From assembly GCF_001592935.1 (NCBI RefSeq), contig NZ_LRDB01000003.1:1-64000 (forward strand): a stretch of DNA of 64,000 bases, read 5' to 3'. The position numbers and the translations under genes are program-made. Numbering within the stretch: position 1 is the first letter of the stretch; each line of letters begins with the position of its first letter. The notes beneath the pieces are model-generated. The model did not search any database, had not been told where the DNA came from, and worked only from the letters and a program-made list of their open reading frames with translations. The DNA comes from Roseivirga echinicomitans (GTDB lineage: Bacteria; Bacteroidota; Bacteroidia; Cytophagales; Cyclobacteriaceae). Positions 40,074 through 49,348 of this stretch are shown here, piece after piece.

Positions 40074-41522
40074 ATGACTGATCGAGAGTTGAATATTCTA
40101 TTGAGTGAGTTGCGTTCATTTCCCAGTGAAACGGAATGGCTTGAATTCAAGATTAACAATGATGCTGAACTTGGAGAATATATTTCAGCATTATCAAATT
40201 CAGCATGTATTCATGACAAACCGTATGGGTATATTATTTTCGGTATTGACGATAAAACTCACAGAGTTGTTGGCACAAATTTTAATCCTAATAAGAAGGC
40301 AAAGGGCAACGAAGACTTAGTTCCATGGATTAATAGAGTTTTGAGCCCTAGAGTTCACTTTGAAGTATTCAAGATTAATCATGCCGATGGGGGTGTTGTC
40401 ATATTCCGAATAAAAGCAACAACCAATACACCCGTTTCATTTCAAGGAACTGCTTTTGTAAGGGTTGGTTCTTACAAACAAAAACTCTCTGATAATCCTG
40501 AGAAAGAAAGATTGATTTGGACTAAGAGGCCTGTTGTTCAATTTGAGAATGAAATAGCAGAAGATAATTTAGACATAGATCAAGTATTAAAGCTTTTGGA
40601 TTATCCATCATACTTCGACTTAATGAATCTTCCCCTTCCTTCGAATAAAAGTGGGATTGTTGAAAAGCTAATAAATGAAAAACTTATTCAGAAGGAGGGC
40701 TCTAAATATGCTATCACAAATCTCGGAGCCATATTATTTGCAAAGGAAGTAGAACACTTTGAAACTCTTGAGAGAAAGGCTGTCAGAGTTATTATATACG
40801 ATGGGAAGAATAAAAGAAAAACCATAAAAGAACAAACTGGAAAAAAAGGTTATGCTGTGGGTTTTGAAGGTTTAGTAAACTATATAGATGATCAACTACC
40901 ATCCAATGAAATAATAGATAACGCCTTAAGAAAAGAAGTAAAAATGTACCCCAAGTTGGCTATTAGGGAACTCGTAGCGAATGTAATCATTCATCAAGAT
41001 TTTAGAGAAAGAGGTACTGGCCCAATGGTAGAATTATTTTCGGACAGGATTGAGATCTCTAACCCTGGCAAACCATTAATTAATACACTCAGATTCGTAG
41101 ATCATAACCCTCAATCAAGAAATGAAAGATTAGCCCAATTTATGAGGAGGTTGAATATATGTGAAGAAAGAGGAAGCGGAATAGATAAGGTGTTATTTGA
41201 ATGTGAATTTTTCCAACTCCCTGCTCCAAAAATCATCGAAGGAGAGAACTATACAAGAATCATTCTGTACTCCTATAAGACATTACGTCAAATGGATAAA
41301 GAGGATAAAATTAGAGCATGTTATATGCACAGCTGCTTAAAAATTGTATCCGGAGAATACATGACAAATCAAACACTCCGTGAACGGTTTGGGATTGATG
41401 AAAAGAATTATTCCATAGCATCTAGAATAATATCGGAGACGATTAAATCTGGCTTGGTGAAAGATTATGATCCAGATAGTAGCTCAAAAAAACACGCTAA
41501 ATACGTTCCATTCTGGGCTTGA
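40074..41522 (+). CDS. AlbA_2 (Schlafen-type) and HATPase_c_4 ATP-binding protein
   Basis: A 482-residue regulator-like protein. Residues ~15-125 form an AlbA_2/divergent AAA-4 domain (TEWLEFKINN, YIIFGIDDKTHRVVG, GTAFVRVGSYKQKL). Residues ~290-400 carry a histidine-kinase-like ATPase segment (AIRELVANVIIHQDFRERG, FSDRIEISNPGKP) and the C-terminus is winged-helix-like (MTNQTLRERFG). Proteins of this layout are common in accessory DNA and some serve in phage defence or as transcriptional regulators. It stands alone, looks AT-rich against its neighbours, and is flanked by similar TATGTGACT stretches (40011-40027 and 41536-41552). Confidence 0.82.
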   Translation: MTDRELNILLSELRSFPSETEWLEFKINNDAELGEYISALSNSACIHDKPYGYIIFGIDDKTHRVVGTNFNPNKKAKGNEDLVPWINRVLSPRVHFEVFKINHADGGVVIFRIKATTNTPVSFQGTAFVRVGSYKQKLSDNPEKERLIWTKRPVVQFENEIAEDNLDIDQVLKLLDYPSYFDLMNLPLPSNKSGIVEKLINEKLIQKEGSKYAITNLGAILFAKEVEHFETLERKAVRVIIYDGKNKRKTIKEQTGKKGYAVGFEGLVNYIDDQLPSNEIIDNALRKEVKMYPKLAIRELVANVIIHQDFRERGTGPMVELFSDRIEISNPGKPLINTLRFVDHNPQSRNERLAQFMRRLNICEERGSGIDKVLFECEFFQLPAPKIIEGENYTRIILYSYKTLRQMDKEDKIRACYMHSCLKIVSGEYMTNQTLRERFGIDEKNYSIASRIISETIKSGLVKDYDPDSSSKKHAKYVPFWA

Positions 41523-41655: not shown

Positions 41656-42336
41656 CTAACTCAACACCGCAATATTCGGAATAACAATTTGACTGCGAGA
41701 GTAGGACAATGCTCCTTCTTCTTTGAGTTCGTTGATAATGGTGGTTACGGTTTGGCGAGAAGAGCTGATCAAACTGGCGATTTCATTATGGGTTAAGTAG
41801 TTTTTAATCAACACACCTTCGGGAGTGTCTTTGCCTTCATTGATCGCCCACATTTTAAGGAAGTCTTTGAGCCTTTCTTTTACATCTTTAAACACCAAAT
41901 TGGCATGTCGATGCTCGAGTTTGCGCAGCTTATCCCCGATCTTTTTGGTGAAGTTTAAGCACAGCATTGGGTGTTTGTGCATCAACTCTTCAAACTCGTC
42001 CATGGTAAAAGTGCAGAGAATTACTTCGCTAGAGAGTATTTCGGCATACTCATGACTGAGCGTAAGCATATTGAAAGAGATTTCGCCAAACAGGTCGCCA
42101 GTAAGCAAAATGTCCTTGATCATTTCATTGCCCGACTGGTCCATTTCGCTGATTTTTATTTTCCCGTTAATGAGAAAGTAAACGCGTTTCACCTCATCGC
42201 TAGCAAAGTAAATGGTGTGGCCTTTCTTCATTCTTACGAATTTAGAAATACCACAAAGGTCATTGATTTGTTCTTTTGTGAGGTTTGAGAAAAGGTCGTA
42301 GTTCCTCAAATACCAGTACTTAATTTCTCTTTGCAT
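41656..42336 (-). CDS. Crp/Fnr-family transcriptional regulator
   Basis: A 226-residue regulator: a cyclic-nucleotide-binding-like beta-roll (about 20-125, KKGHTIYFASDEVKRVYFLI and LLTGDLFGEISF), a dimer helix, and a Crp-type helix-turn-helix (about 175-215, LTHNEIASLISSSRQTVTTI). There are no Fnr-like N-terminal cysteines for an iron-sulfur cluster. It begins five bases after the LysE-like stop and so is the third gene of the ATP-grasp/LysE/Crp cassette, a likely local regulator. Confidence 0.92.
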   Translation of the reverse strand: MQREIKYWYLRNYDLFSNLTKEQINDLCGISKFVRMKKGHTIYFASDEVKRVYFLINGKIKISEMDQSGNEMIKDILLTGDLFGEISFNMLTLSHEYAEILSSEVILCTFTMDEFEELMHKHPMLCLNFTKKIGDKLRKLEHRHANLVFKDVKERLKDFLKMWAINEGKDTPEGVLIKNYLTHNEIASLISSSRQTVTTIINELKEEGALSYSRSQIVIPNIAVLS

Positions 42337-42341
42337 TGCTC

Positions 42342-42965
42342 TTACAGGTTTATTACCAGTTGAAAAACTGCCACTGCGAGGATTACTGCCCCGAGTATTT
42401 TGTTGTAGTTCTTCGTTAATTTCATGTATACAAACTCCCTCTTTTTCGAGGTAAATACCGCCACCAAATATTGTAGCAGAAAAGCCCCTGCAGCAGTGCC
42501 AATTACGAATGCGGCTTGCACAGGCCAGCGCTCATCCGTAAGCAGATTGTTGCTTCTGAGGTTTGTAATAATGAAGAGCCAAAAAGGATATAATTGAGGG
42601 TTTAGAATTCCGAAACCCATACCGCGCCATACGTGGTTGCCTTTATCTGGACTGTCCTTTTCACTTGCCTCAGTGGGCTTTTGAAATATCAGATATATTC
42701 CAAAAATGAATAAAACACCGATTGTCAGGTATTTGAGGTAGTCATCGAGGTATTCGTAACGACTGAGTAAATTCGAACTACCCAAGGCCAAAGCGCTATA
42801 GAATAATTCGGGTAAACTTCCCCCAAAACCGAAAAGTATGGCTGATTTTTTATTGTACCGAAGGGCAGTTCTGATGGTGCCGAAATTTACCGGCCCCAAT
42901 TGAATCGACCCTGCGAAACTAATTGCTGTTGCTAAAATTAAAGCTTGAAATATGTGCCAAATCAT
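42342..42965 (-). CDS. LysE-family amino acid/metabolite exporter
   Basis: A 207-residue protein with about six membrane helices. The N-terminal FAGSIQLGPVNFGTIRTAL is close to the LysE/RhtB signature (GPxxxxxxxxA), and FGFGGSLPELFYSALAL follows. LysE exporters remove basic or other amino acids and some small peptides. The ATG overlaps the stop of the ATP-grasp gene by four bases, pointing to coupled translation and a shared substrate. Confidence 0.82.
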   Translation of the reverse strand: MIWHIFQALILATAISFAGSIQLGPVNFGTIRTALRYNKKSAILFGFGGSLPELFYSALALGSSNLLSRYEYLDDYLKYLTIGVLFIFGIYLIFQKPTEASEKDSPDKGNHVWRGMGFGILNPQLYPFWLFIITNLRSNNLLTDERWPVQAAFVIGTAAGAFLLQYLVAVFTSKKREFVYMKLTKNYNKILGAVILAVAVFQLVINL

Positions 42966-44026
42966 GTAGTCATGCTTTGGTTTACAGTTTCATTTTTCTC
43001 ACGCCCAAAGTGTGATTTAATCAAGCGCGCCATTTCAAAAACTGGAGTCACTTTTACCCCTTGTTTTATATTGGCCTTACTCACCCTGTACATCATGGTC
43101 ATGTTCTGGGCAATTTCTTTATAAGCCCTGAACAATGAATAAGATGGGTCGTAAATGTGCGCTGGTTCCGAAGTTACTCCGTTTAGTTCTAAAATTTTGA
43201 TGTTTTCTCCTTTGTAAAGGTCTTCCACCGATTTCACTTTTAAGTCAAACCGACCGAAATAGAAACCATCAATTTCAGAAGCTACATCATCAAACACTTC
43301 CACCAATTGGTCATTCAGCAAATGCATTGCACTTAAAAACTTGGTGCCTCGGCAGTGATTTCCAATGGGTTCCAGATTTCTCTTTTCACCTTCAGGAAGC
43401 ACTTCATTCATCGCAGCGCCTAGTCTTTTCGTCATGCTTTCCAACTGAAGTCTAGCGCGGTCATCGTATTCCATCAGTTCGCGAATAGTGGATTTACCAT
43501 CACCTGTTACCGTCAAAAACTCTTTGACTACGATAGAGGTAATTCCCGTTTCATCGCTGTCTGGGAAACGATAGTACAAAACGCCCAACTCGATATCAAA
43601 ACTCACATATTCCTGAATAATGAAATCCTCCTTCGACCTTTTGATGTACCGATCCAATGCCGCTACATTTTCAACTTTCTCCACCTCATTCCCACGCTCG
43701 CCTACATTGGGTTTCACAATAATCGGAAACTCCAATTGGATGCTTTTCAACTCCTGCATTACGTTTTCACAAGGCGTTAGCTTTTTGAAGAAAAGGGTTT
43801 TGGGTAAATACTTCGCATCGATTTTCTTAAGAATATCAATTTTCGATTCGCCAAAAACACCTCCGTGCTCTATACCTGGGTTGGCTGCCGTAAAGTAAGT
43901 GAACGACCGTGCTCTGATAGCAAGGTAAATCCACCATGGCACCAAAGGTGTAAAAAACAACCAAAAGGGCCAGTACTCATAACTCAACCACTTGACGATA
44001 AACAGGGGTAACTTCTTTTTCTTCAT
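42962..44026 (-). CDS. Membrane-associated ATP-grasp ligase
   Basis: A 354-residue protein when started at the ATG at 44026; a longer frame upstream is rich in unlikely sequence. Residues ~5-40 hold hydrophobic aromatic-rich segments (WPFWLFFTPLVPWWIYLAI), then a conserved TAANPGIEHGGVFGESK motif. Residues ~100-310 form an ATP-grasp core (FPIIVKPNVGERGNEVEKV, FIIQEYVSFDIELGVLYY, FGRFDLKVKS, KILELNGVTSEPAHIYD). ATP-grasp ligases join a carboxylate to an amine, often making peptides. Substrates are unknown here. Overlap with a LysE exporter suggests that the product is exported. Confidence 0.78.
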   Translation of the reverse strand: MKKKKLPLFIVKWLSYEYWPFWLFFTPLVPWWIYLAIRARSFTYFTAANPGIEHGGVFGESKIDILKKIDAKYLPKTLFFKKLTPCENVMQELKSIQLEFPIIVKPNVGERGNEVEKVENVAALDRYIKRSKEDFIIQEYVSFDIELGVLYYRFPDSDETGITSIVVKEFLTVTGDGKSTIRELMEYDDRARLQLESMTKRLGAAMNEVLPEGEKRNLEPIGNHCRGTKFLSAMHLLNDQLVEVFDDVASEIDGFYFGRFDLKVKSVEDLYKGENIKILELNGVTSEPAHIYDPSYSLFRAYKEIAQNMTMMYRVSKANIKQGVKVTPVFEMARLIKSHFGREKNETVNQSMTT

Positions 44027-44104: not shown

Positions 44105-44141
44105 ATTCTGCCGTCTGCAGAATTGTCTTCCTTGAGACAAT
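44105..44141. repeat. Two adjacent stem-loops
   Basis: ATTCTGC/GCAGAAT (44105-44111 and 44117-44123) and ATTGTCT/AGACAAT (44122-44128 and 44135-44141), both perfect 7-bp arms sharing two bases. TTGTCA and TGACAA outside may form a larger cruciform. It resembles a decayed intergenic repeat element. Confidence 0.6.
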
Positions 44142-44413
44142 GAATGTGCCAAGTGACAATACAAAAACGCAACTATCTATTATACAGATTATTATGGAGA
44201 AAGATAAGACAAATCAAGTCTGAACCCGCAGCATTTTCTCACGATATAAAGTGAATATCATGAAATAAACGGAATTGTATTTCAAGAAGGTAATTTGAGC
44301 GACAAATACGACAAGCATCAATTAGTCAGATGGTTATGAGGCAAACACCCTGACCTAATTAACAGCCAGAAGAAATAATTACGATATTTCGGGAAAAACA
44401 AACCTTAGCCGAA

Positions 44414-46279
44414 TCATCTTTTAATCCCTAATTTCTTCATTCTAGACTCTAGCGTGGTAGGTTTCATTCCTAAGATCTTTGCTGCACCTTTCTCTCCGCT
44501 CACTCGCCACATGACTTCATTCAAAACTTTGAGGATGTATTTCCTTTCGAAGTCTTCCAAGCTTAGCAATTCAGTTTCTGATTGCTCAGTAGTTTTGTTG
44601 GGCATCCAGCCTGCCAACTCGAGCTTTTGAGTACCGCTAATAATTACGGCCCTTTCTATTACATTTTCCAATTCCCGAATATTACCCGGCCAGTGATAGG
44701 TTTGTAGGGCCCTAATTACAGACTTTGGAATATTGACGATTCTTTTACCCAACAATGGGCCATACTTATCTACAAAATGTCTGACCAATAATGGAATATC
44801 CTCTTTGCGTTCGCGCAACGGAATACTGTAAATCGGGAATACATTCAATCGATAATAGAGGTCTGCTCTGAACCTTCCTTCTGTCACTTCCTTTTCCAGC
44901 TCACGGTTGGTAGCGGCTATAATTCGAACATTCACTTTTATGGTTTTAGTACCGCCAAGCCTTTCGAACTCGCCTTCTTGAAGCACGCGCAACAACTTCG
45001 CTTGAAGCTCAATCGGCACCTCTCCTATTTCATCTAGGAAAATGGTGCCTCCATCAGCCAGTTCGAACCTGCCGGATTTCCGCATAACGGCTCCTGTGAA
45101 AGCTCCTTTCTCATGACCAAAAAGCTCACTTTCAATTAGGTTAGCAGGAAGTGAAGCACAATTGATCTTCACCAACGGACGATTTTTTCGATTACTGATA
45201 TTATGCACTGCACGTGAAAGCAACTCCTTACCAGTGCCAGACTCACCCAAAACCAAAACTGTAGCATCCGTTTTAGCCACCTGTTCTACCTGAGTTAACA
45301 CCTGTTTAAACTTTAGACTATGGCTTATAATTTCTTCAAAGTTGTGCTCTATTTTTATCTCCTGCTGTAAGTATGTGTTTTCTGCTTCGAGTCGATCCTT
45401 CAAATCTTCGACTTCATTTAAAGCTTTCACCAGCTTTATATTTGCAGCATTACGTTCAATTTCTAGGCTTGCTCTTTCTGCCAAGGTGTTGAGTATTTGT
45501 ATTTCCTCTTCTGAAATACTCAATTCCTGATTACTGAACAGGGCCAAATTACCAATACACTCACCCGTTCTAGAAACAATAGGAAAACCGATATAGCCTA
45601 CAACCCCCTCATCTTTATAAAAATCATTCCCTACCTGACGCTTCTGGTGATAGGGCTTCTTTGTTTCGAGAATAATCTCACAAGGAGTTCCTTCCACATC
45701 GTATTCAATATTCTCTTGCAACTGACCATTTTCATAATAAGCCAAAGTCCTCAATCTAGTTTTCTCAGCACTGGTGCATTCCGTCACAATGGCCATGGTT
45801 ACGCCAAGGGCATTGGTAATATTTTCTACCAAAAGTTTGAAATAGTCCTCGCCAATGGCAGCAGTAGTGTTTTGAGTAATTGACTTTAAGAGCTTCTCCT
45901 TTCTTTTTCGTTCACTGATGTCCAGTACGAAACTGATATTGTAGGCCTGTCCCTCAAACTCAACATAATTCAAAAATATCTCAACGGGAATTTCATCACC
46001 GCTTTTCGTGAAATGGGTAGACTCTAGTGTAAACCGAGTCTCGGCAGGAAACCGTTTCCACATTTCTTGATAACTACTCTGAGTGTAATTTCTGTTGATA
46101 TCATAAATCAACATGCTTAGAAATTCGTCCTTTGTATAGCCATAATTTTGGCAGGCCGTTTCATTGGCGTATACAATTCTACCCTCACTATCCATCCAGA
46201 AAATAGAAGCCAAAGCCCGTTCGAGCGTAAAGTAGGATAGGCGAGTAAGGTCCTCTAAGCTATATTTTCGTGGTGACAT
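44414..46279 (-). CDS. Sigma54-dependent regulator with PAS and GAF domains
   Basis: A 621-residue enhancer-binding activator. Domains in order: PAS (about 15-125, [18 protein letters not shown]), GAF (about 150-290, [20 protein letters not shown]), a short coiled coil ([18 protein letters not shown]), sigma54-interaction AAA+ (about 325-555; [54 protein letters not shown]) and a Fis-type HTH ([20 protein letters not shown]). The GAFTGA loop is intact, so it can activate sigma54 polymerase. It has no receiver domain and must sense a ligand or redox signal through PAS/GAF. It is divergent from the tandem plug-domain lipoproteins. Confidence 0.95.
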
Positions 46280-46466: not shown

Positions 46467-46883
46467 ATGAAGTCCTTAATTAAAACATCCCTTGTCATGT
46501 TTCTATTCCTCTCTCTAGGAGCCTGCGCAAGCACTGCTGGGTCGAGCGGCAAAAAAGGAAAAGACTATTCCATTTACCAAACGCTTGGAGATGCCTTGCA
46601 AAGTGTTGGAAGCCTTAAAGTAACCGGTCAAGGAGGGTCGTTTACCGTCAATCTTATTGCTGGAAAGTATGCCAATTCCAATTTGGGTGCCGATCAAGGA
46701 AGCGTATTGTATGTCATTAATGGGATTGATCAAGGTAAAGATTACGGAGCCGCTTCTTCATTGGTAGTCCCAAAAGACATTATATCCATCCGCGTTTTAA
46801 ATGGCTCAGAAGCGGTCATGAAATGGGGAGACAGAGGAACAGGTGGGGTTGTTGAAATTAGGACCTCTACAGGTAATGAATAA
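46467..46883 (+). CDS. Standalone TonB-plug-domain lipoprotein, copy 1
   Basis: A 138-residue predicted lipoprotein (signal ending LGACAS, Cys at about 19). Its only domain resembles the plug of TonB-dependent receptors: DYSIYQTLGDALQSVGSLKV, VLYVINGIDQG, PKDIISIRVLNGSEAVMKWG and RGTGGVVEIRT, matching the usual YVIDG, INPNDIESIEVLKG and YGSRGANGVV phrases. There is no beta-barrel, so it cannot itself be a channel. It is paralogous to the next gene with about 70 percent similarity by eye, and is adjacent to a divergent sigma54-type regulator. The role is unknown. Confidence 0.82.
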   Translation: MKSLIKTSLVMFLFLSLGACASTAGSSGKKGKDYSIYQTLGDALQSVGSLKVTGQGGSFTVNLIAGKYANSNLGADQGSVLYVINGIDQGKDYGAASSLVVPKDIISIRVLNGSEAVMKWGDRGTGGVVEIRTSTGNE

Positions 46884-47029: not shown

Positions 47030-47461
47030 ATGAAGTACCTTACCAAAACAATTGTCATTTTTTCAATTCTGCTTTTTGGCTCCTCTTGTGCAAAGAATAT
47101 GCAGAACTCGAGAACCAGAGCTCCTGAAAAAGACTACTCCATCTATCAAACATTAGGAGACGCTTTACAGAGTATCGGGACACTGAAAGTAACTGGGCAA
47201 GGCGGAATGTATACCGTAAACCTAATAGCAGGTAGGTATGCCAACTCAAACCTTATGTCGAACCCAGGAAGTGTGCTGTATGTCATTAATGGTATTGACC
47301 GAAGTAAAGACTATGGAGCAGCTTCCTCTTTGGTTACCCCTAAAGACATTATCTCCATAAGAGTGCTCAATGGGCCTGAAGCAGTAATGAGATGGGGTGA
47401 ACGTGGAACAGGTGGCGTAGTACTTATAACAACCAAAGAAAAAGAACCGGACAATACTTAG
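47030..47461 (+). CDS. Standalone TonB-plug-domain lipoprotein, copy 2
   Basis: A 143-residue paralogue of the previous gene (signal ending GSSCA, Cys at about 21). It shares DYSIYQTLGDALQS, KVTGQGG, VNLIAG, YANSNL, GSVLYVINGID, KDYGAASSLV, PKDIISIRVLNG, EAVM and WGERGTGGVV, with differences mainly near the ends (C-terminus VLITTKEKEPDNT). The conservation of the plug core in both copies suggests selection. No TonB box is seen at the N-terminus, unlike true receptors. Confidence 0.82.
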   Translation: MKYLTKTIVIFSILLFGSSCAKNMQNSRTRAPEKDYSIYQTLGDALQSIGTLKVTGQGGMYTVNLIAGRYANSNLMSNPGSVLYVINGIDRSKDYGAASSLVTPKDIISIRVLNGPEAVMRWGERGTGGVVLITTKEKEPDNT

Positions 47462-47579: not shown

Positions 47580-48047
47580 ATGAAAAACTCTAAATATATA
47601 ATATTGCTGGTCATCTGCATTTATGCTACCCATGCTCTAAATGCGCAAGACGTTAAAACCAAAGATTATAATCTAGAAAATGGTTTGGCCATACAAGGTT
47701 ATGACCCCGTAGCCTACTTTACAGAAAATAAAGCTGTTGAAGGCACTAAAAACATTTCATCAAGGCATAACGGTGTCACCTATTATTTTGCCAACATGAA
47801 ACACAAAACAATGTTTGATGTCGATCCATCAAAGTACGAGCCCGCTTATGGAGGGTATTGCGCCTATGCGATGGCCTTTGGCGATAAAGTGAAAATTGAT
47901 CCTGAAACCTTCAAAATTAAGAATGATCGCCTTTTCCTTTTCTATAATTTCAGGTTCAACAATACATTAAAAGACTGGAACCAAGACGAGGGTAATTTAT
48001 TTAATAAGGCCGAGAGTGAATGGCGAAAAATAATTTCCATAAAATAA
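47580..48047 (+). CDS. Secreted YHS-domain protein
   Basis: A 155-residue protein with a signal peptide (about 1-22, ending ALNAQ) and one YHS-type domain: LAIQGYDPVAYFTENKAVEG followed by GVTYYFANMKHKTMFDVDPSKYEPAYGGYC. YHS domains occur in metal-transport and heavy-metal ATPase proteins, and GYDPVAYF plus YGGYCA is the common secreted form. The role may be metal binding. A 12-mer CTAAATGCGTAA flanks it on both sides (47510 and 48064). Confidence 0.85.
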   Translation: MKNSKYIILLVICIYATHALNAQDVKTKDYNLENGLAIQGYDPVAYFTENKAVEGTKNISSRHNGVTYYFANMKHKTMFDVDPSKYEPAYGGYCAYAMAFGDKVKIDPETFKIKNDRLFLFYNFRFNNTLKDWNQDEGNLFNKAESEWRKIISIK

Positions 48048-48158: not shown

Positions 48159-48674
48159 ATGCAGTTACAGCAAATTTCGGTTGAAATACTCAACCAGCTC
48201 ATTACGATCTCAAATCAATTAAAAGATAATGAGTTTAGGTCTCCTTTGAATATTCTATCTAAGAATTCTATCGGGAAACACATTAGGCACATTATCGAAT
48301 TTTATGATCTAATGATGGTAGGTCACACCACGGGAAAGGTAGATTACGATAAGCGTTCACACGATAAAGTACTTGAAGAGAATAGGGTTTTGGCCATTGA
48401 GAAAATGAATACATTAGGTCAAGAAATCATGGCCATTTCAATAGACCAGCCCATCACCATGTCTGCCAATTACTCTCTAGATGGAAACGACCCTGTAACC
48501 ATTAATACTACTCTATTTAGAGAACTGCAATACAATATCGAGCATGCGGTTCATCATATGGCCATTATTAAAATAGCTTTGCTAAATGCCTTTGCTGAAG
48601 TGAGAATTCCAGAAAGCTTTGGCGTAGCTTATTCTACCATAAAATATCAGAGAGACTCTGAATGTGCACAGTAA
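48159..48674 (+). CDS. DinB-like four-helix metalloprotein
   Basis: A 171-residue DinB-superfamily protein. The metal-binding histidines are in SIGKHIRHIIEFYD (near 50) and in the C-terminal NIEHAVHHMAIIKIAL (near 132). Members include bacillithiol- or mycothiol-dependent transferases; since this organism carries YpdA, a bacillithiol S-transferase-like role is conceivable but unproven. Its 3' end overlaps the NRDE gene by 13 bases, so the two are co-translated. Confidence 0.82.
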   Translation: MQLQQISVEILNQLITISNQLKDNEFRSPLNILSKNSIGKHIRHIIEFYDLMMVGHTTGKVDYDKRSHDKVLEENRVLAIEKMNTLGQEIMAISIDQPITMSANYSLDGNDPVTINTTLFRELQYNIEHAVHHMAIIKIALLNAFAEVRIPESFGVAYSTIKYQRDSECAQ

Positions 48675-49348
48675 CCTTCCTTCCTAAGGGAAAATCCTCC
48701 TACATTTTAACTTCTAACCGGGACGAAACGCCTAAGCGAGCTGCTTTGGCTCCAGAAGCTTATACAGCTCACGGTAAAGAAGTATTCTTTCCTAAAGATC
48801 CGCTTGCTGGAGGAACTTGGGTAGCCACGGACAAGCAACAATTCACGCTGTGTTTGCTGAATGGCGCTTTCGAAAAACACCATCACAAACCACCCTACAA
48901 GCTGAGTCGTGGCATTATGCTACTTGATTTTTTCAAGTATAACAATATTCAAAGTTTTGTAGAGCAGTACGACTTCAGCGGAATTGAGCCCTTCACCCTA
49001 ATTCTCATTGAAAGCAACAATAGCCTGAGCGCTACTGAGCTAGTGTGGGACGAAATGAAGCTATATGTCAGGTCTTTGGATGTAACTCAGCCTCAGATAT
49101 GGAGTTCCAGTACGCTTTACCCTGAAGCGGTGAGAGCGGAAAGAAAACACTGGTTTAAACTGTGGCTCGAAGCGCACGATAAGTTTCAACAAAATGAAAT
49201 TATCGACTTCCATAAAACAGGTGGCAAAGGGGATGAATGGAATGACTTTGTAATGAACCGAGAGGGCAAAGTGCAGACGGTGAGCGTTACCTCTATTGAG
49301 AAAAACACAGACTACTACACCATGGTGTATGAAGACTTAATCAGCTAA
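48662..49348 (+). CDS. NRDE/TANGO2-like protein
   Basis: A 228-residue protein starting MCTVTFLP with SNRDE at about 18-22 and GGTWVATDKQ near 52, the signatures of the NRDE family related to human TANGO2. The exposed Cys2 after removal of Met resembles an N-terminal nucleophile, suggesting Ntn-hydrolase ancestry. Function in bacteria is not settled. It overlaps the DinB-like gene by 13 bases and, at its 3' end, the convergent membrane-protein gene by four bases. Confidence 0.85.
   Translation: MCTVTFLPKGKSSYILTSNRDETPKRAALAPEAYTAHGKEVFFPKDPLAGGTWVATDKQQFTLCLLNGAFEKHHHKPPYKLSRGIMLLDFFKYNNIQSFVEQYDFSGIEPFTLILIESNNSLSATELVWDEMKLYVRSLDVTQPQIWSSSTLYPEAVRAERKHWFKLWLEAHDKFQQNEIIDFHKTGGKGDEWNDFVMNREGKVQTVSVTSIEKNTDYYTMVYEDLIS

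What the first reader, a model, noticed from the sequence alone, without database searches (positions are those of the whole stretch)
41656..44026. Compact ATP-grasp ligase, LysE exporter and Crp/Fnr regulator cassette
Seen: the ATP-grasp gene overlaps LysE by four bases, and LysE is followed five bases later by a Crp/Fnr gene, all leftward. The ligase has an N-terminal aromatic-rich hydrophobic segment and a conserved-looking TAANPGIEHGGVFGESK motif. Known: ATP-grasp enzymes join acids to amines, and LysE exports amino acids. Inference: a self-contained unit that makes and exports a small amide or peptide under local control. I do not know a described system with this layout.
Basis: partly seen in the sequence, partly recalled or inferred. 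Interest (0 to 1): 0.6.

Follow-up and report, generated by a model that had tools for sequence, protein, structure and literature searches.

The report
Membrane amide-ligase module with TANGO2-like amidase
The three genes are the left half of a larger, widely shared and apparently undescribed bacterial gene module that pairs a probably membrane-bound amide-making enzyme with a transporter, a DinB-like protein and often a relative of the human disease protein TANGO2, and it may build or remodel amino-acid-bearing membrane lipids.

Summary
Observation confirmed: ATP-grasp (42962-44026), LysE (42342-42965) and Crp/Fnr (41656-42336) run leftward with a 4-base overlap and a 5-base gap. It is not a self-contained trio. 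The ligase reaches no Pfam or NCBIfam cut-off, keeps the catalytic residues, has a very hydrophobic N-terminal helix and a fold closest to cyanophycin synthetase. In 148 genomes of its order it and a DinB-like protein are both present in 62 and only one of them in 7; a TANGO2-family protein is often there too. Both are encoded at 48.2-49.3 kb in the window. The membrane partner is usually LysE in Bacteroidota, and a VTT-domain protein, adjacent or fused, in another class and some Proteobacteria. Aminolipid genes (OlsB, OlsA, OlsF) adjoin it in three lineages. Best reading: a membrane amide ligase that extends or remodels an acyl-amino acid or similar amphiphile, with a translocator and often a TANGO2-like amidase. 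Against: the window's genome has no recognisable GlsB/OlsF, and TANGO2 and OlsB neighbours share a locus only in Vibrio. No held paper combines TANGO2 with ATP-grasp.

The parts
42962..44026 (-). ATP-grasp ligase, 354 aa, start ATG at 44026; K105, P106, Q138, E146, R259, D261, E280, N282, G283 invariant among relatives
43916..43972 (-). codons 19-37 of the ligase: very hydrophobic aromatic helix, probable membrane anchor or lipid-binding helix (inference)
   Evidence: helix 21-39; 39 of 39 rows
42342..42965 (-). LysE-family transporter, 207 aa
   Evidence: (22 of 22 aligned members match PF01810)
41656..42336 (-). Crp/Fnr-type regulator, 226 aa; weakly conserved member
44137..44151 (-). sigma-54-type promoter TGGCAC-N5-TTGT before the ligase
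   Evidence: in 6 of 6 same-genus loci aligned; one mismatch to the consensus used (consensus recalled)
44105..44123 (-). 7-bp hairpin with invariant AGACG loop just downstream of the promoter; all 7 pairs kept in 6 of 6 sequences, 4 pairs with changes on both sides
44414..46279 (-). PAS-GAF-AAA(sigma-54)-Fis regulator, possible activator of the leftward operon
   Evidence: an rpoN gene is in the genome
46467..46883 (+). small protein, TonB-plug match just under the cut-off (23.8 of 23.9 bits); start of the rightward arm
47030..47461 (+). second small protein with a TonB-plug match (25.8 of 23.9 bits)
47580..48047 (+). YHS-like protein (17.6 of 30.3 bits, below the Pfam cut-off); its family is near 40 of 106 ligase loci
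48159..48674 (+). DinB-like protein with invariant H41, H44, H129, H132, H133; tightest genomic partner of the ligase
48662..49348 (+). NRDE/TANGO2-family protein (predicted Cys Ntn hydrolase fold, Cys2); overlaps the DinB-like gene by 13 bases

Best explanation
The window carries a two-armed module. Leftward: ATP-grasp ligase, LysE, Crp, from a sigma-54-type promoter next to its probable activator gene. Rightward: two TonB-plug-like proteins, a YHS-like protein, a DinB-like protein and a TANGO2-family protein. Inferred mechanism: the ligase sits on the inner face of the cytoplasmic membrane by its N-terminal hydrophobic helix, activates with ATP the carboxylate of a membrane amphiphile (most likely an N-acyl amino acid or similar aminolipid) and joins it to an amine such as an amino acid. 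The product is moved across or out of the membrane by LysE, or by the VTT protein in other lineages. The TANGO2-like protein, predicted to have the fold of Cys-type N-terminal-nucleophile amidases, trims or recycles amides of the same kind; the DinB-like protein does an unknown, perhaps metal-dependent step. Shown here: gene order, co-occurrence, domain fusions, predicted folds and conserved residues. Inferred: membrane position, lipid substrate, direction of transport, roles of DinB and TANGO2.
For: Ligase: ATP-grasp residues invariant; closest fold the ATP-grasp part of cyanophycin synthetase (7wae_A, Z 17.7, rmsd 4.6, 275 aligned; Foldseek E 6.5e-11). Hydrophobic helix in 39 of 39. Transporter: same-strand LysE within 1.2 kb in 49 and VTT in 12 of 106 loci, LysE and VTT never both within 8 kb. 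VTT fused to the ligase in Azospirillum and hydrolase-like-VTT-ligase triple fusions in another class. Co-occurrence: ligase and DinB both in 62, one only in 4 and 3, neither in 79 of 148 genomes; 48, 8, 3, 237 of 296. TANGO2 protein: 43 of the 46 order genomes that have it also have the ligase; one NRDE-ligase fusion (G390); model matches human TANGO2 at Z 21.4, both alignments starting at residue 2, then CV2077 (19.1), N-acylethanolamine amidase (18.9) and acid ceramidase (17.6). Lipid: OlsB near the ligase in 9 of 9 triple-fusion loci read and directly after it in Variovorax; Vibrio order VTT-ligase-DinB-NRDE-YHS-DoxX-OlsF; PF13444 within 8 kb in 25 of the 43 phylum-sample genomes with both genes.
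Against: The window's own genome has no GlsB/OlsF match at E 1e-10, only a generic GNAT. Across the order sample, ligase and GlsB/OlsF are not clearly associated: 21 both, 45 ligase only, 16 GlsB/OlsF only, 66 neither, p 0.064. Of 23 named host genomes searched, 9 have any PF13444 match and 6 one below E 1e-9. TANGO2 and OlsB/OlsF neighbours occur in the same locus only in Vibrio: the other 10 of 11 OlsB/OlsF loci have no NRDE within 8 kb, and 4 of the 9 triple-fusion loci have no DinB there. Of five Proteobacterial loci counted, only two (L032, L145) have DinB and NRDE near. LysE proteins are known (recalled) as amino-acid exporters, not lipid flippases. 45 of 106 loci show neither LysE nor VTT beside the ligase (some loci are cut by contig ends). 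No substrate, activity or membrane localisation was tested. The Asn of NRDE is Ser in some members (L062, L072, L078, L081, L085), one clustered protein (L089) lacks the Met-Cys start and the E of NRDE, and the equivalents of human Asn157 and Lys166 were not determined. Co-occurrence p-values are not corrected for relatedness.
Confidence: 0.45

Rival explanations
1. Soluble-product model: the ligase makes a small peptide or amide from water-soluble acids and LysE exports it; the hydrophobic helix only docks the enzyme to the transporter.
For: LysE is the usual partner in Bacteroidota and is known (recalled) as an amino-acid exporter; the closest folds, cyanophycin synthetase, RimK and D-Ala ligase, use soluble substrates (recalled); most order-sample hosts lack known aminolipid acyltransferases.
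Against: Use of a VTT-domain protein instead of LysE and VTT fusion; OlsB/OlsA/OlsF neighbours in three lineages; TANGO2-like partner with the fold of fatty-amide hydrolases.
Confidence: 0.25
2. Redox/heme envelope module: the TANGO2-like protein traffics heme as reported for Shewanella HtpA, with YHS, DoxX, DM13, YceI and a peroxiredoxin-like protein; the ligase makes a protective or metal-binding amide.
For: YHS near 40, DoxX near 24, YceI near 23 of 106 loci; DM13 family near 9 of 79; AhpC/TSA protein in locus L160; bacterial TANGO2 reported as heme-trafficking (PMC10470608, passages read).
Against: The human TANGO2 crystal paper found heme interactions non-specific (PMC13044924, abstract and passages). 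I recognised no heme or cytochrome gene among the recurrent neighbours, but most of those families were not identified by a library. Does not explain VTT and OlsB links.
Confidence: 0.12
3. Low-molecular-weight thiol or conjugate pathway, with logic like ergothioneine synthesis (ligase, DinB-type enzyme, Ntn amidase), exported by LysE.
For: DinB-superfamily enzymes include thiol transferases, and the ergothioneine pathway pairs a ligase, a DinB-domain enzyme and an Ntn amidase (both recalled); DinB is the tightest partner.
Against: No thiol-biosynthesis gene was recognised near, though this was not searched for; does not explain VTT fusions, OlsB/OlsA or the hydrophobic helix.
Confidence: 0.08

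Closest known systems
Cyanophycin synthetase ATP-grasp region (CphA1, CphA2; PDB 7wae, 7txv, 7ta5)
   Same: Best fold and profile matches; lysine/glycine-rich loop and E-x-N metal motif align
   Different: 354 aa single unit without the other CphA domains; hydrophobic N-terminal helix; 13-20% identity; no sign of a cyanophycin context
D-alanine--D-alanine ligase (name given in public records of Salinivibrio and Komagataeibacter relatives)
   Same: ATP-grasp fold
   Different: No Ddl family reaches its cut-off; the labels look like over-annotation
Aminolipid pathways OlsB/OlsA, OlsF, GlsB/GlsA
   Same: OlsB-, OlsA- or OlsF-type genes adjoin the ligase in three lineages; flavolipin (Gly-Ser lipid) needs an amide ligation and its exact biosynthesis is stated unknown (PMC10056535, legend seen)
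   Different: The known steps use acyltransferases, not ATP-grasp; the window's genome lacks them
TANGO2/NRDE proteins and Cys Ntn hydrolases (human TANGO2, NAAA, acid ceramidase)
   Same: Fold Z 21.4 to TANGO2 (8sv7_B), 18.9 to NAAA, 17.6 to acid ceramidase; alignments start at the N-terminal Cys
   Different: Bacterial, set in a ligase-transporter module, fused to the ligase in one genome; the Asn of NRDE is not invariant

Membership tests
ATP-grasp superfamily | Lys and Gly-rich loop plus Mg-binding E-x-N in an ATP-grasp fold | tested here: met
ATP-grasp superfamily | A curated Pfam or NCBIfam family reaches its cut-off | tested here: not met
   window protein: (best Pfam RimK 20.1 of 21 bits); 10 of 39 rows match RimK at E 0.001, and the fused relative L142 passes the RimK cut-off (22.2 of 21). 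A library cut-off, not a biochemical criterion.
Cyanophycin synthetase | Additional N-terminal and MurE-like domains of CphA (recalled) | tested here: not met
   354 aa; only chain residues 159-484 of 7wae_A align
LysE translocators | PF01810 over its cut-off | tested here: met
   58.4 of 25.6 bits; 22 of 22 aligned members match at E 0.001
TANGO2/NRDE | PF05742 over its cut-off and TANGO2 fold | tested here: met
   50.8 of 22.6 bits; Z 21.4; 24 of 27 aligned members match at E 0.001
Cys Ntn hydrolase | N-terminal Cys after Met, with catalytic Asn/Asp and oxyanion Asn | tested here: inconclusive
   M1-C2 and R20-D21-E22 invariant in 27 of 27 chosen rows, 42 of 45 clustered proteins show a Met-Cys near the start; Asn of NRDE varies; oxyanion residue not determined; activity untested
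DinB superfamily | Pfam DinB/DinB_2 match and His site | tested here: inconclusive
   12 of 25 rows match PF05163 at E 0.01, the window member none; H41, H44, H129, H132, H133 invariant
Aminolipid biosynthesis cluster | OlsB/GlsB/OlsF-type N-acyltransferase in the genome | tested here: not met
   none in the window's genome at E 1e-10; met in other lineages
Aminolipid biosynthesis cluster | Ligase acts on an acylated amino acid | not testable with these tools
   needs biochemistry

The most novel reading that the evidence does not exclude
A membrane ATP-grasp ligase and a TANGO2-family Ntn amidase form a conserved make-and-break pair for lipid-linked amides, with LysE or VTT as alternative translocators and a DinB-like protein as the third core member. 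This would be a new route to dipeptide or tripeptide lipids (flavolipin-like, Gly-Ser-Orn lipids) and would suggest for bacterial, and by descent human, TANGO2 a natural substrate class: fatty-acyl amides.
Probability: 0.22. Interest if true: 0.85.

Novelty: new variant of a known kind. Interest (0 to 1): 0.62.

Why it matters
The human TANGO2 structure paper says its function and substrates remain unknown (PMC13044924, passage), and the exact biosynthesis of flavolipin, thought to need serine added to a glycine lipid, is stated unknown (PMC10056535, legend). A conserved genomic partnership between a TANGO2-family protein, an amide ligase and a membrane translocator gives both questions a concrete bacterial test: delete one gene and compare lipid amides. 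The near-perfect pairing of the ligase with an uncharacterised DinB-like protein also gives that protein a specific partner.

Tried and rejected
Rejected: D-Ala-D-Ala ligase label (fold only; no family cut-off reached). Anti-phage defence: no PADLOC match for five of six module proteins; the Crp protein gives weak matches to TIR-effector models and a SoFic model. Self-contained trio: rejected. Obligate OlsB/GlsB partner: rejected for the order sample. Sigma-54 site as a general feature: found in the 4 Roseivirga of 13 named loci with the regulator nearby, not in the other 9, and in 1 of 66 without it; sites of this kind are not in excess in the window (40 with up to 2 mismatches, 49 expected), so only the conservation counts. 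Sigma-70 and terminator scans gave no excess. Rfam: one match far below its gathering score. Phage collections were not searched for the ligase. Papers: seen as listings unless a reading call is named; one search found 0 papers holding 3 of its 5 module terms, one search found 0 with TANGO2 and ATP-grasp, one search found 1 with ATP-grasp and ornithine lipid, where the phrase occurs once, in the reference list. A first folding alignment used badly chosen ends and was replaced. A Chitinophaga argument was dropped: the one searched host labelled Chitinophaga (L107) groups with Chryseolinea relatives on the ligase tree.

Counting choices: of 69 order genomes with a ligase match at E 1e-3, three weak ones (G002, G026, G094) were dropped, leaving 66; G129 is a fragment and was kept. 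Of 80 named loci, L090 is missing from the 79 because my gene caller found no intact ligase frame; it is in the 106. The 106 are 80 named loci, 5 plasmid-collection loci, 20 stretches that I chose from the 56 ligase genomes, and the window. Strong PF13444 means E below 1e-15; eleven weaker matches (E 1e-15 to 1e-9) all lie in genomes without the ligase, and with them the phylum p-value is 3e-10 instead of 4e-12. The OlsB/OlsA profiles were built from five of the nine triple-fusion loci, which match by construction; Pfam was run on three of these loci, and one search finds PF13444 independently in 25 such genomes. The alpha/beta-hydrolase label of the fusions was given by eye and by my own profile; Pfam found no such domain in L142. 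Neighbour labels such as YHS, DoxX and YceI are Pfam results for one representative each, spread by clustering.
Full report
What is there. Three leftward genes are as described: ATP-grasp ligase 42962-44026, LysE 42342-42965 (PF01810), Crp/Fnr 41656-42336. The ligase reaches no Pfam or NCBIfam cut-off, but a profile of 19 sequences finds cyanophycin synthetases and RimK-type enzymes in the PDB, with the KP-x(2)-G and E-x-N motifs aligned. AlphaFold2 gives mean pLDDT 91.7; the closest solved folds are cyanophycin synthetases (7wae_A, Z 17.7, rmsd 4.6, 275 aligned). The N-terminus has a helix (21-39) whose best 19-mer scores -19.5 on the octanol scale; 39 of 39 rows are negative there, and the best 19-mer starting beyond residue 70 of the window protein is +2.8.

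How far the pair goes. The window's genome has two LysE-family matches in all. The consecutive ligase-LysE-Crp order is seen in 4 of 79 named loci, all Roseivirga, in L002 of the same genus and in L008 of another family. Crp is near 17 of 106 loci.

The larger module. The same survey showed other neighbours within seven genes: DinB-like 55, NRDE/TANGO2 41, YHS 28, YceI 20, DoxX 16, sigma-54 regulator 13, Crp 13, DM13 9 of 79. In the window they lie just right of the trio: YHS-like 47580-48047, DinB-like 48159-48674 and NRDE 48662-49348 on the plus strand, with the sigma-54 regulator 44414-46279 on the minus strand between. In a wider set of 106 loci, DinB is within 8 kb in 73, LysE in 57, NRDE in 55, YHS in 40, DoxX in 24, YceI in 23, VTT in 12, OlsB/OlsF in 11. 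A Vibrio replicon carries VTT, ligase, DinB, NRDE, YHS, DoxX and OlsF in a row, and a Salinivibrio one VTT, ligase, DinB, NRDE. The other Proteobacterial loci are poorer: Azospirillum L031 shows only VTT, Komagataeibacter L033 none of these, Variovorax L144 only OlsB.

Co-occurrence. In 148 genomes of the window's order, ligase and DinB are both present in 62, ligase alone in 4, DinB alone in 3, neither in 79 (Fisher p 8e-33). In 41 of the 62 they lie within 10 kb of each other; of the other 21, five have them far apart on one contig and 16 on different contigs, which fragmented assemblies could partly cause. In 296 genomes of the phylum the table is 48, 8, 3, 237. NRDE is in 46 of the 148, and 43 of those have the ligase. 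These p-values ignore kinship. As a rough guard, ten families of the order sample (f1, f2, f4, f5, f9, f11, f16, f19, f20, f22) each hold both a genome with the two genes and a genome with neither, as I read the lists.

Membrane partners and fusions. The ligase is fused behind a VTT domain in Azospirillum, behind a hydrolase-like part and a VTT domain in another class of the phylum (L136, L140-L142, L147-L155), and behind an NRDE domain in one genome (L128 and L156, both G390). On a tree of 106 ligase sequences the VTT label needs 2 changes and the LysE label 21, in each case fewer than in any of 500 shuffles; near-copies help such clustering. LysE and VTT are never both within 8 kb.

The TANGO2 protein. 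All 27 rows chosen for alignment keep Met1-Cys2 and R20-D21-E22; of the 45 proteins in the cluster, L089, L090 and L111 show no Met-Cys near the start. 24 of 27 match PF05742. Its model (pLDDT 92.2) matches human TANGO2 at Z 21.4 (rmsd 3.0, 218 aligned, starting at residue 2 of both), then CV2077 (3gvz, 19.1), N-acylethanolamine amidase (18.9) and acid ceramidase (17.6) (Foldseek). The human TANGO2 structure paper (PMC13044924; outline and passages) proposes a Cys Ntn hydrolase acting on fatty-acid derivatives and calls the substrate unknown; another reports acyl-CoA binding (PMC11867700; passages); a third reports heme traffic in Shewanella (PMC10470608; passages).

The lipid link, for and against. 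For: OlsB (PF13444) is near the triple fusion in 9 of 9 loci read and OlsA (PF01553) was recognised in 8 of 9; OlsB directly follows the ligase in Variovorax and OlsF closes the Vibrio row. In the phylum sample 43 of 56 ligase genomes have a strong PF13444 match against 63 of 240 others (p 4e-12), and in 25 of the 43 it is within 8 kb. Against: in the order sample the association is weak (21, 45, 16, 66; p 0.064), and the window's genome has none, although other Roseivirga genomes do: L169 (Roseivirga sp. E12) has adjacent PF13444 and PF19576 genes that look like GlsB and GlsA, as has Labilibaculum L171. NRDE is not near OlsB/OlsF except in Vibrio (10 of 11 loci without it), and 4 of the 9 triple-fusion loci have no DinB near. 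A Labilibaculum lipid study reports ornithine lipids, glycine lipids and flavolipins (PMC12927429; passages), and Labilibaculum carries the ligase (L059, L067, L070). Chitinophaga makes Gly-Ser and Gly-Ser-Orn lipids (PMC8433624; passages and discussion), so tripeptide lipids that need further ligations exist in the phylum. That the exact flavolipin synthesis is unknown is a statement of PMC10056535 (legend seen).

Regulation. In Roseivirga a TGGCAC-N5-TTGT element stands about 120-145 bases before the ligase start in 6 of 6 loci, with a 7-pair hairpin and constant AGACG loop right after it; all pairs are kept and four show changes on both sides. RpoN is encoded and the neighbouring gene is a PAS-GAF sigma-54-type regulator. 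The element was not found before the operons of the other 9 named loci with that regulator nearby.

Verdict. A real and widespread module whose core is ligase plus DinB-like protein, often with a TANGO2-family protein and a membrane transporter. That it makes amides is likely and that it does so at a membrane is plausible; that the substrate is an aminolipid is the best-supported guess, not shown. On rechecking I lowered the probability of the most novel case from 0.25 to 0.22, because TANGO2 and OlsB neighbours hardly ever share a locus.

Noticed in passing
window 44105-44151, minus strand: Conserved sigma-54-type promoter followed by a covarying 7-bp hairpin with constant AGACG loop in Roseivirga; possible 5' leader element.
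   Followed up: partly
L159 (G428, about the middle of the locus): Two ligase copies flank an NRDE gene, followed by LysE; G004 and G096 also hold two or more matches, which might add successive residues.
   Followed up: no
window 46467-46883 and 47030-47461: Two similar small proteins with a TonB-plug-like domain, without a barrel, at the head of the rightward arm.
   Followed up: no
L042:10282-10986 and its cluster (20 members): Recurrent neighbour family of about 235 aa with no Pfam match; looks secreted by eye.
   Followed up: no
plasmid records, e.g. L032, L033: Relatives of the ligase are annotated as D-alanine--D-alanine ligase or VTT domain protein; the first looks wrong.
   Followed up: partly
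L146:7368-9025: In Azospirillum thermophilum the VTT and ligase parts are annotated as two overlapping genes and the ligase match falls in two pieces, unlike the fused gene of its relatives.
   Followed up: no
window 40074-41522: Schlafen AlbA_2 plus RecG-type ATPase-domain protein directly left of the trio; not among the recurrent neighbours.
   Followed up: no
L107 and L078: Records labelled Chitinophaga (a MAG) and Flavobacterium carry ligases that group with Chryseolinea and Spirosoma/Larkinella relatives on the tree; the labels may be wrong or the gene transferred.
   Followed up: no
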